Assembly (NCBI RefSeq): GCF_900104745.1
Contig: NZ_LT629732.1
Location: 4,389,981 to 4,453,980 of the forward strand
Direction: 5' to 3'
Origin: Actinopolymorpha singaporensis
GTDB taxonomy: Bacteria; Actinomycetota; Actinomycetes; Propionibacteriales; Actinopolymorphaceae
Length of the DNA: 64,000 nt
Within the stretch, counting starts at the first letter, position 1; every line of letters begins with the position of its first letter. Shown piece by piece: positions 20,270 to 56,672 of this stretch. Made by a program: the position numbers and the translations under genes. The notes under the pieces were generated by a model. It was not told the origin of the DNA, searched no databases, and saw only the letters and a program-made list of their open reading frames with translations.

Positions 20270-20341
20270 TGGGCGATACTGGGATTGAACCAGTGACCTC
20301 TACCGTGTCAAGGTAGCGCTCTCCCACTGAGCTAATCGCCC
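20270..20341 (-). tRNA. tRNA-Val (GAC)
   Basis: A 72-base cloverleaf: acceptor GGGCGAT/ATCGCCC, anticodon stem CTACC/GGTAG with loop TTGACAC (anticodon GAC), and T arm CTGGTTCAATCCCAG. CCA is not encoded. Last member of the minus-strand Gly-Cys-Val cluster. Confidence 0.95.
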
Positions 20342-20360
20342 GCATGTGCGAGGAGTTTGG

Positions 20361-20431
20361 AGGTGGAGACGGGATTTGAACCCGTGTACACGGCTTTGCA
20401 GGCCGTTGCCTCGCCTCTCGGCCACTCCACC
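20361..20431 (-). tRNA. tRNA-Cys (GCA)
   Basis: A 71-base tRNA with acceptor GGTGGAG/CTCCACC, anticodon stem ACGGC/GCCGT and loop CTGCAAA (anticodon GCA). A CCA is encoded immediately after the discriminator (20358-20360). Confidence 0.95.
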
Positions 20432-20487
20432 AACGGCGCGCCGCCCTGCCGACCTGGATGAAAACCCAAGCCACCAGGCCCGCTCCG

Positions 20488-20560
20488 AGCGGACGACGGG
20501 ATTCGAACCCGCGACCCTCACCTTGGCAAGGTGATGCGCTACCAGCTGCGCTACGTCCGC
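20488..20560 (-). tRNA. tRNA-Gly (GCC)
   Basis: A 73-base tRNA with acceptor GCGGACG/CGTCCGC, anticodon stem TCACC/GGTGA and loop TTGCCAA (anticodon GCC). First tRNA of the minus-strand cluster, 58 bp past the CapA gene stop. Confidence 0.95.
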
Positions 20561-24295: not shown

Positions 24296-24367
24296 GGGCG
24301 ATTAGCTCAGCGGGAGAGCGCTTCGTTCACACCGAAGAGGTCACTGGTTCGATCCCAGTATCGCCCA
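24296..24367 (+). tRNA. tRNA-Val (CAC)
   Basis: A 72-base cloverleaf: acceptor GGGCGAT/ATCGCCC, anticodon stem CTTCG/CGAAG, loop TTCACAC (anticodon CAC). It differs from the Val(GAC) gene at 20270 mainly in the anticodon arm, suggesting duplication. Confidence 0.95.
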
Positions 24368-52567: not shown

Positions 52568-52751
52568 GGAATCGCACCCCGCGCCTGGCGGGCAGCGGGC
52601 CGGGGGTGGACACTGGAGGAGCGGGCCCAACCGGACCTGCCGGACAGCCCGGTCACCGGAGACGAACCGGACAGGGTGGTACGACGGTGGACGGGCGGGT
52701 CGACATCGGACGGGCTCGGACAGGGTTGACCGCGACCCGACTCGGTGCCCG

Positions 52752-52757
52752 TAAACT
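52752..52757 (+). promoter_or_regulatory. -10 box of relA
   Basis: TAAACT 30 bases before the relA GTG; a TTGACC -35-like hexamer lies 20 bases upstream, wider than the ideal spacing. Confidence 0.5.
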
Positions 52758-52786
52758 GGTTTCTTGCCGCCCCCGAGGAGACCGCA

Positions 52787-55258
52787 GTGGCCGACGAGAC
52801 CGCTCCATCCGCGCCGGCGCGCCGTGAGGTGTCCCCGGCGCCGCACCGCTCGGTGAGCGTGTCCAGGAGTCGCGCCGCGGCCCTGGAGGCAACCGCACCG
52901 GACTCCGACACTCGTCCGGCGCAGTCGCCCCAGGGGCCGAACGGCACCGCCGAGACCGTTCCGTCGAGCGGTCGGCGTGCGTCCTCTGGCGGGCAGGCCG
53001 CGGTCGGGCCGTTCTCCGCCTCGTCGCGACGGATGCGCCAGCGGCTCGCCCGGCTGGGCCGGACGCCGCAGGGCAACCCCGTGCTGGAGCCGCTGTTCCG
53101 GATCGTCCGCAGCACCCACCCCAAGGCCGACCTGGCGCTCATCGAGCGCGCCTACCACACGGCCGAGCGCTATCACCGGGGCCAGACCCGCAAGAGCGGC
53201 GACCCGTTCATCACCCACCCCGTCGCCGTGGCCACCATCCTGGCCGAGCTCGGCATGACGCCGCCCACCCTGTGCGCGGCGTTGCTGCACGACACGGTGG
53301 AGGACACGCCGTACACCCTCACCGAGCTCCGCAACGACTTCGGCGACGAGATCGCGCTGCTGGTCGACGGCGTGACCAAGCTCGACAAGGTCAAGTACGG
53401 CGAGAGCGCCCAGGCCGAGACCATCCGCAAGATGGTCATCGCGATGGCCAAGGACATCCGGGTGCTGGTGATCAAGCTCGCCGACCGGCTGCACAACATG
53501 CGGACGCTGCGATACGTCAAGCAGGCCTCCCAGGAACGCACCGCACGGGAGACCCTGGAGATCTACGCCTCGCTGGCCCACCGCCTCGGCATGAACACGC
53601 TGAAGTGGGAGATCGAGGACCTCGCCTTCGCCACGCTGCACCCCAAGCTGTACGACGAGATCGTCCGGCTGGTCGCCGAGCGGGCGCCCTCGCGCGACGA
53701 GTACCTCGCGAAGGTCATCGACCGGGTGCAGTCCGACCTGCGCGAGGCGAAGATCAAGGCGACGGTCACCGGCCGGCCCAAGCACTACTACTCGATCTAC
53801 CAGAAGATGATCGTGCGGGGCCGGGAGTTCGGCGACATCTACGACCTGGTCGGCATCCGCGTCCTGACCGACTCCGTACGCGACTGTTACGCCGCCCTCG
53901 GCGTCATCCACGCGCGATGGAATCCCGTGCCCGGGCGGTTCAAGGACTACATCGCGATGCCGAAGTTCAACATGTACCAGTCGCTGCACACCTCGGTGAT
54001 GGGGCCGGAGGGCAAGCCGGTCGAGATGCAGCTGCGGACGTTCGCGATGCACCGGCGGGCCGAGTACGGCGTCGCGGCCCACTGGAAGTACAAGGAGGAC
54101 CCGACCGCCGGTCCGGAGACCGACAACGGCGGCCCCAACGACATGGCCTGGCTCCGGCAGCTGCTGGACTGGCAGCGCGAGACCGAGGACCCCGGCGAGT
54201 TCCTGGAGTCGCTGCGCTTCGAGATCAACTCCACCCAGGTCTACGTCTTCACCCCGCGCGGAGACGTGATCGCGCTGCCCACCGGCTCGACACCGGTCGA
54301 CTTCGCATACGCCATCCACACCGAGGTCGGACACCGGTGCATCGGCGCCCGGGTCAACGGCCGACTGGTCCCGCTGGAGAGCCAGCTAGAGAACGGCGAC
54401 CTGGTGGAGGTGTTCACCTCCAAGGCCGAGGGCGCCGCGCCGAGCCGCGACTGGCTGACCTTCGTCCGCAGTCCGCGTGCCCGCAACAAGATCCGGCACT
54501 GGTTCACCAAGGAACGCCGCGAGGAGGCCATCGACCAGGGCAAGGAGCAGCTGGCCCGGATGGTCCGCAAGGAGGGCCTGCCGCTGCAGCGGATGCTCAC
54601 CCACGAGTCGCTGGCCGCGATCGCCCGCGAGCTGAAGTACTCCGACGTGTCGGCGCTGTACGCCGCGGTCGGGGAGGGCACCATCACCGCGCAGTCGGTG
54701 GTCCGCCGGCTGGTGGAGTCGGTCGGCGGCTCCGGCGAGGAGGCCGAGGACGTCTCCGAGGCGGTCATCATCTCTCCGGAGACCGGCCGCAAGGAGCGGT
54801 TGCCCCGGGGCGACTCCGGTGTGGTCGTGAAGGGCGTGACCGACGTCTGGGTGAAGCTCGCCAAGTGCTGTACGCCGGTGCCGGGCGACGCGATCGTCGG
54901 GTTCGTCACCCGCGGCGCCGGTGTGTCGGTGCACCGCGGCGACTGCGTCAACATCGGCCACCTGACCGCCCAGCCCGAACGCATGGTCGAGGTCGAGTGG
55001 GCGCCGACCGCGCAGAGCCTGTTCCTCGTCGCGGTCCAGGTGGAGGCGCTGGACCGCGCCCGGCTGCTCAGCGACATCACCCGGATCCTGTCCGACCAGC
55101 ACGTCAACATCCTGTCGGCGTCGGTGACCACCACCCGCGACCGCGTGGCGAAGAGCAGGTTCACCTTCGAGATGGGCGACCCCAAGCACCTGGGCCACGT
55201 GCTCCGCGCGGTGCGCAGCGTGGACGGCGTGTTCGACGCCTACCGCGTCACCAACTGA
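52787..55258 (+). CDS. relA: Bifunctional (p)ppGpp synthetase/hydrolase (RelA/SpoT)
   Basis: An 823-residue stringent-response enzyme. The HD hydrolase is intact ([22 protein letters not shown]), the synthetase has [13 protein letters not shown] and [13 protein letters not shown], followed by TGS ([20 protein letters not shown]), and a C-terminal ACT domain ([19 protein letters not shown]). A disordered N-terminal 80 residues is typical of the actinobacterial Rel. GTG 52787 with GAGGAG upstream; earlier frame crosses the promoter. Confidence 0.97.
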
Positions 55259-55441
55259 CTGACGAGCACGCCGGCTAGGCGGGGCGGTGCCTGGGACGAC
55301 GACAACGCGGTCAGGCGGGATGCGGAGCGGGAGCGGGTCGTCCGCGCCCGGCTGACAAGGCGGAGGAGGAAGCGCGTAGCGGTGTTCTACGCGTGACGAC
55401 GACAACGCGGTCAGGCGGGATGCGGAGGCCCGCTCAGCCGG
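55259..55441 (+). ncRNA. Tandem structured RNA-like element of unknown identity
   Basis: Two 33-bp identical segments starting GACGACGACAACGCGG lie at 55295-55327 and 55395-55427, exactly 100 bp apart. Each is immediately preceded by a hairpin: CTAGGC-N8-GCCTGG (55275-55294) and CGCGTAG-N7-CTACGCG (55373-55393). The stems differ in sequence but not in position, and each has CTGACRAG further upstream (55259, 55352). In copy 2 an outer stem CCGGCTGA/TCAGCCGG (55348-55355 with 55434-55441) closes the element. A G-U pair in the copy 1 stem favours the plus strand. I do not recognise it as a named RNA family. Confidence 0.45.
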
Positions 55442-56672
55442 AGAACTCGTCGAGGGTCTTCTCTACCTCGGCCAGCCACGCCCGCCGGGCGTCCAGAGCC
55501 TCCTGCGCGCGACGTTCGCCGGTGACGTCGCCCTTCGCCTGCTGGGCTTCGAGCTCGCGTTCGAGGTCGGCGATCGAGTTGCGCAGCTGGCTGAGTGTGT
55601 CGTTGGCGCGGGCGCGCGTCTCGGGGTTGGTCCGGCGCCACTCGTTGCTCTCCGCCGACCGGATGGCTTCCTCGACCTTGCGCAGCCGGCCCTCTACCGT
55701 ACGAACGGAATCGCGTGGGACCCGCCCGATCTGGTCCCAGCGAGCCAGCAGCGAACGGTAGGCCTCCCGGGCGGCACGGTGGTCGCGTACCGGCAGCAGT
55801 GCCTCCGCCTCGACCAGCAGCGCCTCCTTCTGCTCGAGGTTGGCGCGGTACTCCGCGTCCTGCTCGGCGAACGCCGCGTTGCGGGCGTTGAAGAACCGGT
55901 CCTGTGCTGCCCGGAACCGCTTCCACAGTTGGTCTTCCACGTCGCGCGCGGCGGGCCCGGCAGCCTTCCAGCGCTGCATGAGGGTGCGGAACTGCGTGGT
56001 GCCGCGGCCCCAGTCGGTGGAGTCGGCCAGCGCCTCGGCCTCGGCGGCGAGCGCCTCCTTGACCTGGCGGGCGTCCTCGCGGCGTACGTTCAGCTCCGAG
56101 AAGTGCTGCTTGCGCCGGCGGGTGTAGGACGTACGGGCACTGGAGAAGCGCCGCCACAGCTCGTCATCGGTCTGCTTGTCCAGCCGGGGCAGCGCCTTCC
56201 ACTGCTCAAGCAGCTCGCGGAAGCGCCCGACGCCGTGCCGCCAGTCCGAGCCGCTCGCCAGGGCCGCGGCCTCGTCGGCGATCGCGGACTTGGCCGACCG
56301 GGCCTCCTCGAGCTGCCGCTTGCGCTCGGTGCGACGCTCGGCGCGCCGCCCGGCGATCACTTCCTCCAGCTGGTCGAGCCTGGCCGACAGGGCACCGAGG
56401 TCACCGATCGCCTGGGCGCCTGCGAGGTTGCGGCGCTCGCGGCGCAGTGCGTTGTGGGCGTCGTCGGGGGCGAGGATGCCGCTCTCCACCCGGGAGGCGA
56501 GCAGGTCGACCTCCAGCGCGAGGGCGTCGTACTTGCGACGGAAGAAGGCCAACGCTCCCTCGGGATCGCCGACCTGCCAGGATCCGATGGCGCGCTCGCC
56601 CTCGTCGGTGCGGAGGTAGACCGTGCCGTCGTCCGCGACCCTGCCCCAGGGCTCCTCTGCCGTTCCGCTCAC
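55434..56672 (-). CDS. DUF349 domain-containing protein
   Basis: A 412-residue, mainly helical protein with three DUF349 repeats: WRHGVGRFRELLEQWKALPR (about 155), WGRGTTQFRTLMQRWKAAGP (about 233) and AAREAYRSLLARWDQIGRVP (about 307), then a C-terminal coiled coil. Function unknown; the gene is conserved next to relA in actinobacteria. GTG 56672 with GGGAG six bases upstream. Its 3' end reaches into the RNA-like element. Confidence 0.92.
   Translation of the reverse strand: MSGTAEEPWGRVADDGTVYLRTDEGERAIGSWQVGDPEGALAFFRRKYDALALEVDLLASRVESGILAPDDAHNALRRERRNLAGAQAIGDLGALSARLDQLEEVIAGRRAERRTERKRQLEEARSAKSAIADEAAALASGSDWRHGVGRFRELLEQWKALPRLDKQTDDELWRRFSSARTSYTRRRKQHFSELNVRREDARQVKEALAAEAEALADSTDWGRGTTQFRTLMQRWKAAGPAARDVEDQLWKRFRAAQDRFFNARNAAFAEQDAEYRANLEQKEALLVEAEALLPVRDHRAAREAYRSLLARWDQIGRVPRDSVRTVEGRLRKVEEAIRSAESNEWRRTNPETRARANDTLSQLRNSIADLERELEAQQAKGDVTGERRAQEALDARRAWLAEVEKTLDEFSG

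What the first reader, a model, noticed from the sequence alone, without database searches (positions are those of the whole stretch)
55259..55441. Tandem, covarying RNA-like element between relA and the DUF349 gene
Two copies of a 33-bp identical core (GACGACGACAACGCGG...) sit exactly 100 bp apart, each immediately preceded by a hairpin. The stems keep position but differ in sequence (CTAGGC/GCCTGG versus CGCGTAG/CTACGCG), the hallmark of selection for structure. An upstream CTGACRAG box is shared, and copy 2 is closed by an 8-bp outer stem overlapping the DUF349 stop codon. The conserved core is not a plain terminator and I cannot match it to a known RNA family. It may be a 3'-end regulatory element of relA, a small RNA, or a dispersed structured repeat.
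Basis: partly seen in the sequence, partly recalled or inferred. Interest (0 to 1): 0.66.

Follow-up and report, generated by a model that had tools for sequence, protein, structure and literature searches.

The report
Actinobacterial mobile repeat with RNA core
A 107-base hairpin between relA and its neighbour is one copy of an apparently undescribed family of tiny mobile DNA repeats, spread through actinobacteria, that all carry the same unusual RNA fold; here it probably serves as the end-of-transcript hairpin for two genes that face each other.

Summary
Copy 2 (window 55332-55438) is a full 107-nt structured element. Copy 1 (55295-55327) is only the 3' half of a second copy; its "hairpin" does not exceed chance, and its "CTGACRAG box" is the relA stop region. 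The element is not relA-specific: this genome (genus Actinopolymorpha) has 8-9 copies, and covariance models find it in 65 of 394 genomes of the class and in other actinobacterial classes. No Rfam family and no paper held here matches it. The core has three tandem G.A/A.G mismatches separated by single Watson-Crick pairs that covary. Wobbles (31 G.U against 2 A.C) show that the + strand folds, so selection acted on RNA (or single-stranded DNA). Most copies lie inside ~165-bp MITEs whose terminal inverted repeats differ between lineages; one end type belongs to an IS5-family element. A second class, including the window copy, lacks such ends, prefers convergent gene pairs, and abuts the antisense gene's stop codon with its 3' end (27 copies, against 3 with a sense stop at the 5' end). 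Best reading: a MITE-borne RNA element, kept here as a two-way 3'-end hairpin. Termini and structure are shown; function is inferred.

The parts
55332..55438 (+). full-length copy of the structured element, class without terminal inverted repeats (whole hairpin)
   Evidence: R1 hit G000:C1:4445310-4445416, E 2.8e-22, which is window 55330-55436; fold z about -6
55332..55341 (+). 5' arm of the base stem (GAGCGGGTC)
   Evidence: pairs with about 55429-55437; the base stem is re-matched differently in other end-less copies
55350..55356 (+). lower stem next to the core (GGCTGAC), pairs with GTCAGGC
   Evidence: covariation of the homologous pairs
55357..55371 (+). conserved 5' core AAGGCGGAGGAGGAA (three GA units)
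   Evidence: nearly invariant in 57 diverse copies; pairing tested
55373..55394 (+). variable apical hairpin CGCGTAG-CGGTGTT-CTACGCG
   Evidence: 95.5% of cells paired, every counted pair with both-side changes; 31 G.U against 2 A.C
55395..55410 (+). conserved 3' core GACGACGACAACGCGG (three GA units and the AAC bulge)
55411..55438 (+). 3' arm, ending on the antisense DUF349 stop codon (TCA)
55295..55327 (+). 3' half-copy (5'-truncated), identical over 33 nt to copy 2
52745..55258 (+). relA/spoT-type (p)ppGpp synthetase gene, whose transcript would read the element's folded strand (sense)
55434..56672 (-). DUF349 gene, convergent, whose TGA stop abuts the element

Best explanation
It is one copy of a widespread family of small non-autonomous mobile elements of actinobacteria (MITE-like), built around an RNA core that is conserved in structure and sequence. 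SHOWN: the family, its fold, the strand that folds, the mobile termini of most copies, and the position rule of the end-less copies. INFERRED: the mobile form is moved in trans by IS5-type transposases that recognise its terminal repeats and insert it at TA/CTAG, which in GC-rich genomes often means stop codons. In its end-less form (the window copy) the long hairpin has been kept between convergent genes as a two-way 3'-end structure: the relA transcript folds the + strand and the DUF349 transcript the opposite strand, and the hairpin stops RNA polymerase or protects the 3' end. The strict core with three tandem G.A units is more than a terminator needs. It is presumably recognised by a host RNA-binding factor, not identified, that the mobile element exploits.
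For: Dispersed: 8-9 copies in the own genome, 27 in a congener, 56 in another genus of the family; 65/394 genomes and 25/138 genera of the class; other actinobacterial classes; many named genera. Mobile termini: 110 of 161 collected elements have inverted repeats giving a total length of 165.5 +/- 7 bp despite about 20 end-sequence clusters. The TAGGGYGTGTCTCCC end also bounds an IS with DUF4096 and DDE_Tnp_1 ORFs. Structure: 84.1% of cells paired against 64.7% shuffled and 28-51% slid; 298 double-change cells against 113; covariation score 0.51 against 0.17. Core pairs: X1-Y1 G-C 176, C-G 9; X3-Y3 also C-G, AG/CU, GG/CC and GG/CU. Strand: 31 G.U against 2 A.C in 111 unique apical stems, p 1.3e-7; 28 against 6 in lower stems. 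Two-way 3'-end role: 16/23 end-less copies of the genus lie between convergent genes (window baseline 5/36, p 2e-9); a congener lacking the element at this locus (L344, genome G002) has an ordinary hairpin there; no T-run terminator exists around the window copy.
Against: No transcript data, so transcription and termination are untested. The hairpin has no U-tract. The 3'-anchoring to an antisense stop (27 against 3) is not predicted by a symmetric terminator. Gene context rests on a simple codon-usage gene finder trained on this window. Some copies called end-less may have undetected ends. Only one of the end types was traced to a transposase; a search for a parent of the Micromonospora type found none. 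The scan of named genomes used an exact pattern, so core conservation in that subset is partly by selection; searches are free of that.
Confidence: 0.6

Rival explanations
1. Purely selfish MITE: the core matters only for the element's own spread (for example an RNA or single-stranded DNA structure bound by a host factor during transposition), and location between convergent genes reflects purifying selection against harmful insertions.
For: Near-identical copies in one genome; the MITE-borne class has fewer convergent sites, 8/25; the core is retained while the terminal repeats change.
Against: End-less copies have lost the mobile ends yet keep or rebuild the full base pairing, with different base-stem sequences, and are more often convergent than the MITE class (16/23 against 8/25, p 0.02).
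Confidence: 0.3
2. A dedicated 3'-UTR regulator of relA, or a small RNA made from this locus.
For: The element lies directly downstream of relA and its folded strand is the relA strand.
Against: Absent or truncated at this locus in relatives; copies lie elsewhere in the genomes, next to other genes. No promoter-like site nearby, though that scan covers sigma-70 types only.
Confidence: 0.05
3. Chance repeats or a coding artefact in GC-rich DNA.
For: The region is GC-rich and the core contains triplet-like repeats.
Against: Covariation, strand asymmetry and cross-genome recovery are all far beyond the controls.
Confidence: 0.01

Closest known systems
ERIC / IRU (RU) elements of enterobacteria and Correia (CREE/NEMIS) elements of Neisseria
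   Same: Short palindromic intergenic MITEs whose transcripts form long hairpins; insertion at gene 3' ends can affect mRNA fate (review PMC10969869, read). TA target preference is from memory.
   Different: Different hosts and sequences. Here an internal tandem-G.A core is kept while the terminal repeats differ between lineages; to my knowledge (not tested) the known families have characteristic ends and no such core.
REPs: GTAG- and CGTC-tagged palindromic repeats (PMC3733652)
   Same: Hairpins enriched downstream of genes and between convergent genes; many plausibly act as RNA.
   Different: REPs are 20-40 bp, tagged by an unpaired tetranucleotide, and some are linked to RAYT transposases; that paper's text does not mention actinobacteria. 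The present element is 107 nt or ~165 bp and its main class is bounded by transposon-type inverted repeats.
RUP, BOX and SPRITE repeats of Streptococcus pneumoniae
   Same: Small interspersed repeats; SPRITE resembles a Rho-independent terminator (review PMC10969869).
   Different: Host and sequence differ; no T-run here. Not compared computationally.
IS5-family insertion sequences (IS4/5, DUF4096 type)
   Same: Same terminal sequence TAGGGYGTGTCTCCC and CTAG/TA boundary in a congener.
   Different: The element carries no gene; the core was not seen in the IS read here.

Membership tests
Bacterial MITE | short (<500 bp), no coding capacity, terminal inverted repeats | tested here: met
   110 of 161 elements, ~165 bp, TIRs. 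Not met by the window copy itself, which lacks TIRs.
Bacterial MITE | multiple dispersed copies with different flanks | tested here: met
Bacterial MITE | ends shared with an autonomous element of the same genome or genus | tested here: inconclusive
   Met for one end type; no parent found for the Micromonospora type; others not sought.
Bacterial MITE | observed transposition | not testable with these tools
   needs an experiment
Any Rfam family | match to a covariance model of Rfam 15 | tested here: not met
   window at gathering scores, element region up to E 5, seven distant loci up to E 1: only unrelated weak hits
Intrinsic (Rho-independent) terminator | stable hairpin | tested here: met
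Intrinsic (Rho-independent) terminator | U-tract after the hairpin | tested here: not met
   so it is not filed as a canonical intrinsic terminator, only said to work like a 3'-end hairpin
REP / REPIN | 20-40 bp palindrome with an unpaired GTAG or CGTC tag at one end | tested here: not met
   The element is 107 nt with the conserved motif inside the hairpin; definition from PMC3733652
Kink-turn RNA motif | 3-nt bulge directly followed (5' to 3' on the same strand) by tandem G.A, A.G pairs | tested here: not met
   The AAC bulge lies 3' of the GA units on its strand; definition from general knowledge

The most novel reading that the evidence does not exclude
The end-less copies are not decayed MITEs but were inserted through the RNA: the folded + strand RNA was copied into DNA starting from its 3' end next to stop codons. 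This would explain the absence of terminal repeats, the 3' anchoring to antisense stops, the 5'-truncated copies and the single-strand fold, and would make this a bacterial SINE-like retroelement.
Probability: 0.06. Interest if true: 0.92.

Novelty: new variant of a known kind. Interest (0 to 1): 0.62.

Why it matters
Small palindromic mobile elements of bacteria are usually described one genus at a time. Here one RNA core is kept across a phylum, and perhaps beyond, while the transposon ends around it differ. That asks what in the cell recognises the core, and gives a covariance model with which to look for it. The tandem-G.A helix, with covarying single pairs between the mismatches, is an unusual RNA architecture. 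End-less copies at convergent gene ends are a testable case of a transposable element becoming a 3'-end signal in GC-rich bacteria, where intrinsic termination is poorly understood.

Tried and rejected
Rfam at gathering and lax thresholds: nothing relevant. Literature search for core strings: one unrelated hit; searches for actinobacterial MITEs gave no description of this family, but only the open part of PMC is held. Viral contigs: no exact match; phages: no match; plasmids: six Streptomyces records. Sigma-70-type promoter or T-run terminator at the locus: none. relA-specific regulator: rejected. Copy-1 hairpin and CTGACRAG box: rejected. First pairing register of the G.A zone, as drawn by RNAfold and used for R1: replaced by a register with three symmetric GA/AG units and a 3' AAC bulge, because L041, L077, L034 and L065 covary only in that one. 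Kink-turn: geometry does not fit. RNA retroposition: 3'-only copies outnumber 5'-only ones in the genus (about 7 of 28 against 2 of 29), and both 5'-only ones keep a mobile left end; suggestive but weak. Searches centred on the Oscillospiraceae and Byssovorax genomes were not possible.

Full report
WHAT IS THERE. The 33-nt direct repeat is real. The second copy is the 3' core of a 107-nt hairpin at about 55332-55438 that folds on the + strand at about -67 kcal/mol, z about -6. The first copy is a 3' half only: its upstream sequence is not related to the family's 5' arm beyond chance, the stretch does not fold better than shuffles, and both covariance models skip it.

FAMILY. The core occurs elsewhere in the same genome and in four of five congeners with up to 3 mismatches. 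A covariance model from 19 copies of the genus (R1) found it in 7 of 8 genomes of the family, with up to 56 copies per genome, and in 65 of 394 genomes and 25 of 138 genera of the class. A second model from 57 diverse copies (R2) found it in 31 of 396 genomes drawn across the phylum at a stricter threshold, including other classes. One scan hit, Actinopolymorpha rutila, has the contig length of congener G003, so the window's genus is Actinopolymorpha by inference. The bins outside the phylum may be mis-assigned; the Oscillospiraceae ones do carry AT-rich flanks and their own AT-rich ends.

STRUCTURE. Reading the + strand: lower stem, internal loop AAG/n, GC/GC, a 3' bulge AAC, then G-C, [GA/AG], G-C, [GA/AG], G-C, [GA/AG], G-C and a variable apical hairpin. 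In 57 diverse copies the named structure has 84.1% paired cells (shuffled 64.7; slid 28.6-51.0), 298 double-change cells (shuffled 113) and a covariation score of 0.506 (shuffled 0.174; slid at most 0.141). The single pairs between the GA units covary: X1-Y1 G-C 176 and C-G 9; X2-Y2 G-C 188 and C-G 2; X3-Y3 G-C 149, with C-G, AG/CU, GG/CC and GG/CU replacements. The apical stem has 31 G.U against 2 A.C among 111 unique stems, and lower stems flanked by Watson-Crick pairs 28 against 6. Wobble counts are not corrected for relatedness beyond removing identical stems. They indicate that the + strand is the one that folds. This favours RNA, although single-stranded DNA of the same strand is not excluded. 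That the G.A mismatches form sheared pairs is inference.

MOBILE CLASS. 110 of 161 collected elements have terminal inverted repeats that give a total length of 165.5 +/- 7 bp, although the repeats fall into about 20 clusters under a simple score (the cluster number depends on the threshold). Ends lie mostly at TA or CTAG (read by eye). The end type TAGGGYGTGTCTCCC also bounds a ~950-bp IS in a congener whose two ORFs match DUF4096 (IS4/5 transposase) and DDE_Tnp_1. For the Micromonospora end type no parent was found in the genome searched.

END-LESS CLASS, TO WHICH THE WINDOW COPY BELONGS. In the genus 16 of 23 such copies lie between convergent genes, against 5 of 36 gaps of at least 20 bp in the window (p 2e-9) and 8 of 25 for the mobile class (p 0.02). 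The element's 3' end lies within 12 bp of the stop codon of the antisense gene in 17 of 23 (genus) and 10 of 22 (other genera), while a sense stop lies that close to the 5' end in 3 of 23 and 0 of 22 (27 against 3, p 8e-6). In the mobile class of the other genera the corresponding numbers are 38 and 26 of 107. Gene calls come from a codon-usage finder trained on this window and checked only on its relA region; copies at one locus in several species are not independent. In many end-less copies the base stem is perfectly or almost perfectly matched although its sequence differs between copies.

THE LOCUS IN RELATIVES. At relA-DUF349 G001 keeps the 3' half, G004 a decayed 3' half, G003 about 20 nt; G002, G005, G006 and G007 have none. 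G002, which lacks it, has an ordinary hairpin in the gap. The DUF349 stop is at the same place in the close relatives, so the element abuts a native stop.

INTERPRETATION. The simplest account is a MITE superfamily with a conserved RNA core, of which end-less copies are retained at convergent gene ends as 3'-end hairpins. This explains the dispersal, the ends, the convergent bias and the rebuilt base stems. It does not explain why the 3' end, not the 5' end, meets the stop codon, nor why the G.A core is so strict. Those two points are the open questions. The retroposition reading would explain the first but has weak support (3'-only copies about 7 of 28, 5'-only 2 of 29).

KNOWN OR NEW. No Rfam family and no paper found here describes it. 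A 2024 review of prokaryotic MITEs does not mention actinobacteria, Streptomyces or Mycobacterium in its text; the large REP survey does not mention actinobacteria either. Subscription literature was not searchable, so an earlier description under another name cannot be excluded.

Noticed in passing
L011 (G002:C1:3496882-3499909), core at locus 1501-1528: A lone 3' half has become a new perfect palindrome (GCATCCCGCCTGACG-ACAA-CGCCGTCAGGCGGGATGC) next to a stop codon, as if a hairpin were being rebuilt.
   Followed up: partly
L071, L078, L085, L092 and L239-L254 (genome G007): A diverged subfamily with 56 hits in one genome seems to keep only two GA units, with ordinary pairs (GTGCA/TGCAC) in place of the third.
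   Followed up: no
L102, L125, L140, L150, L155, L185, L197: Copies with an AT-rich end type (TACTAATCTCAAATAAAA) in a bin labelled Oscillospiraceae: the family may extend outside actinobacteria.
   Followed up: partly
L106:5171-5269 (Byssovorax bin): A single end-less copy in a myxobacterial bin, with a long, nearly perfect base stem.
   Followed up: no
L021, L031 (G002:C1:3647104-3650347): Three tandem units 108 nt apart, the first 5'-truncated, as in the window; L023 and L034 show a truncated unit followed by a full one.
   Followed up: partly
L348 and L349: 5'-only copies that keep the left mobile end but lack the 3' half.
   Followed up: partly
window 20270-20560 (-) and 24296-24367 (+): Four tRNA genes (Rfam RF00005), three of them in a cluster.
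   Followed up: no
conserved 5' core, window 55357-55371: The GGAGGAGG stretch is complementary to the 16S anti-Shine-Dalgarno sequence although no reading frame was seen to follow; it is paired inside the hairpin.
   Followed up: no
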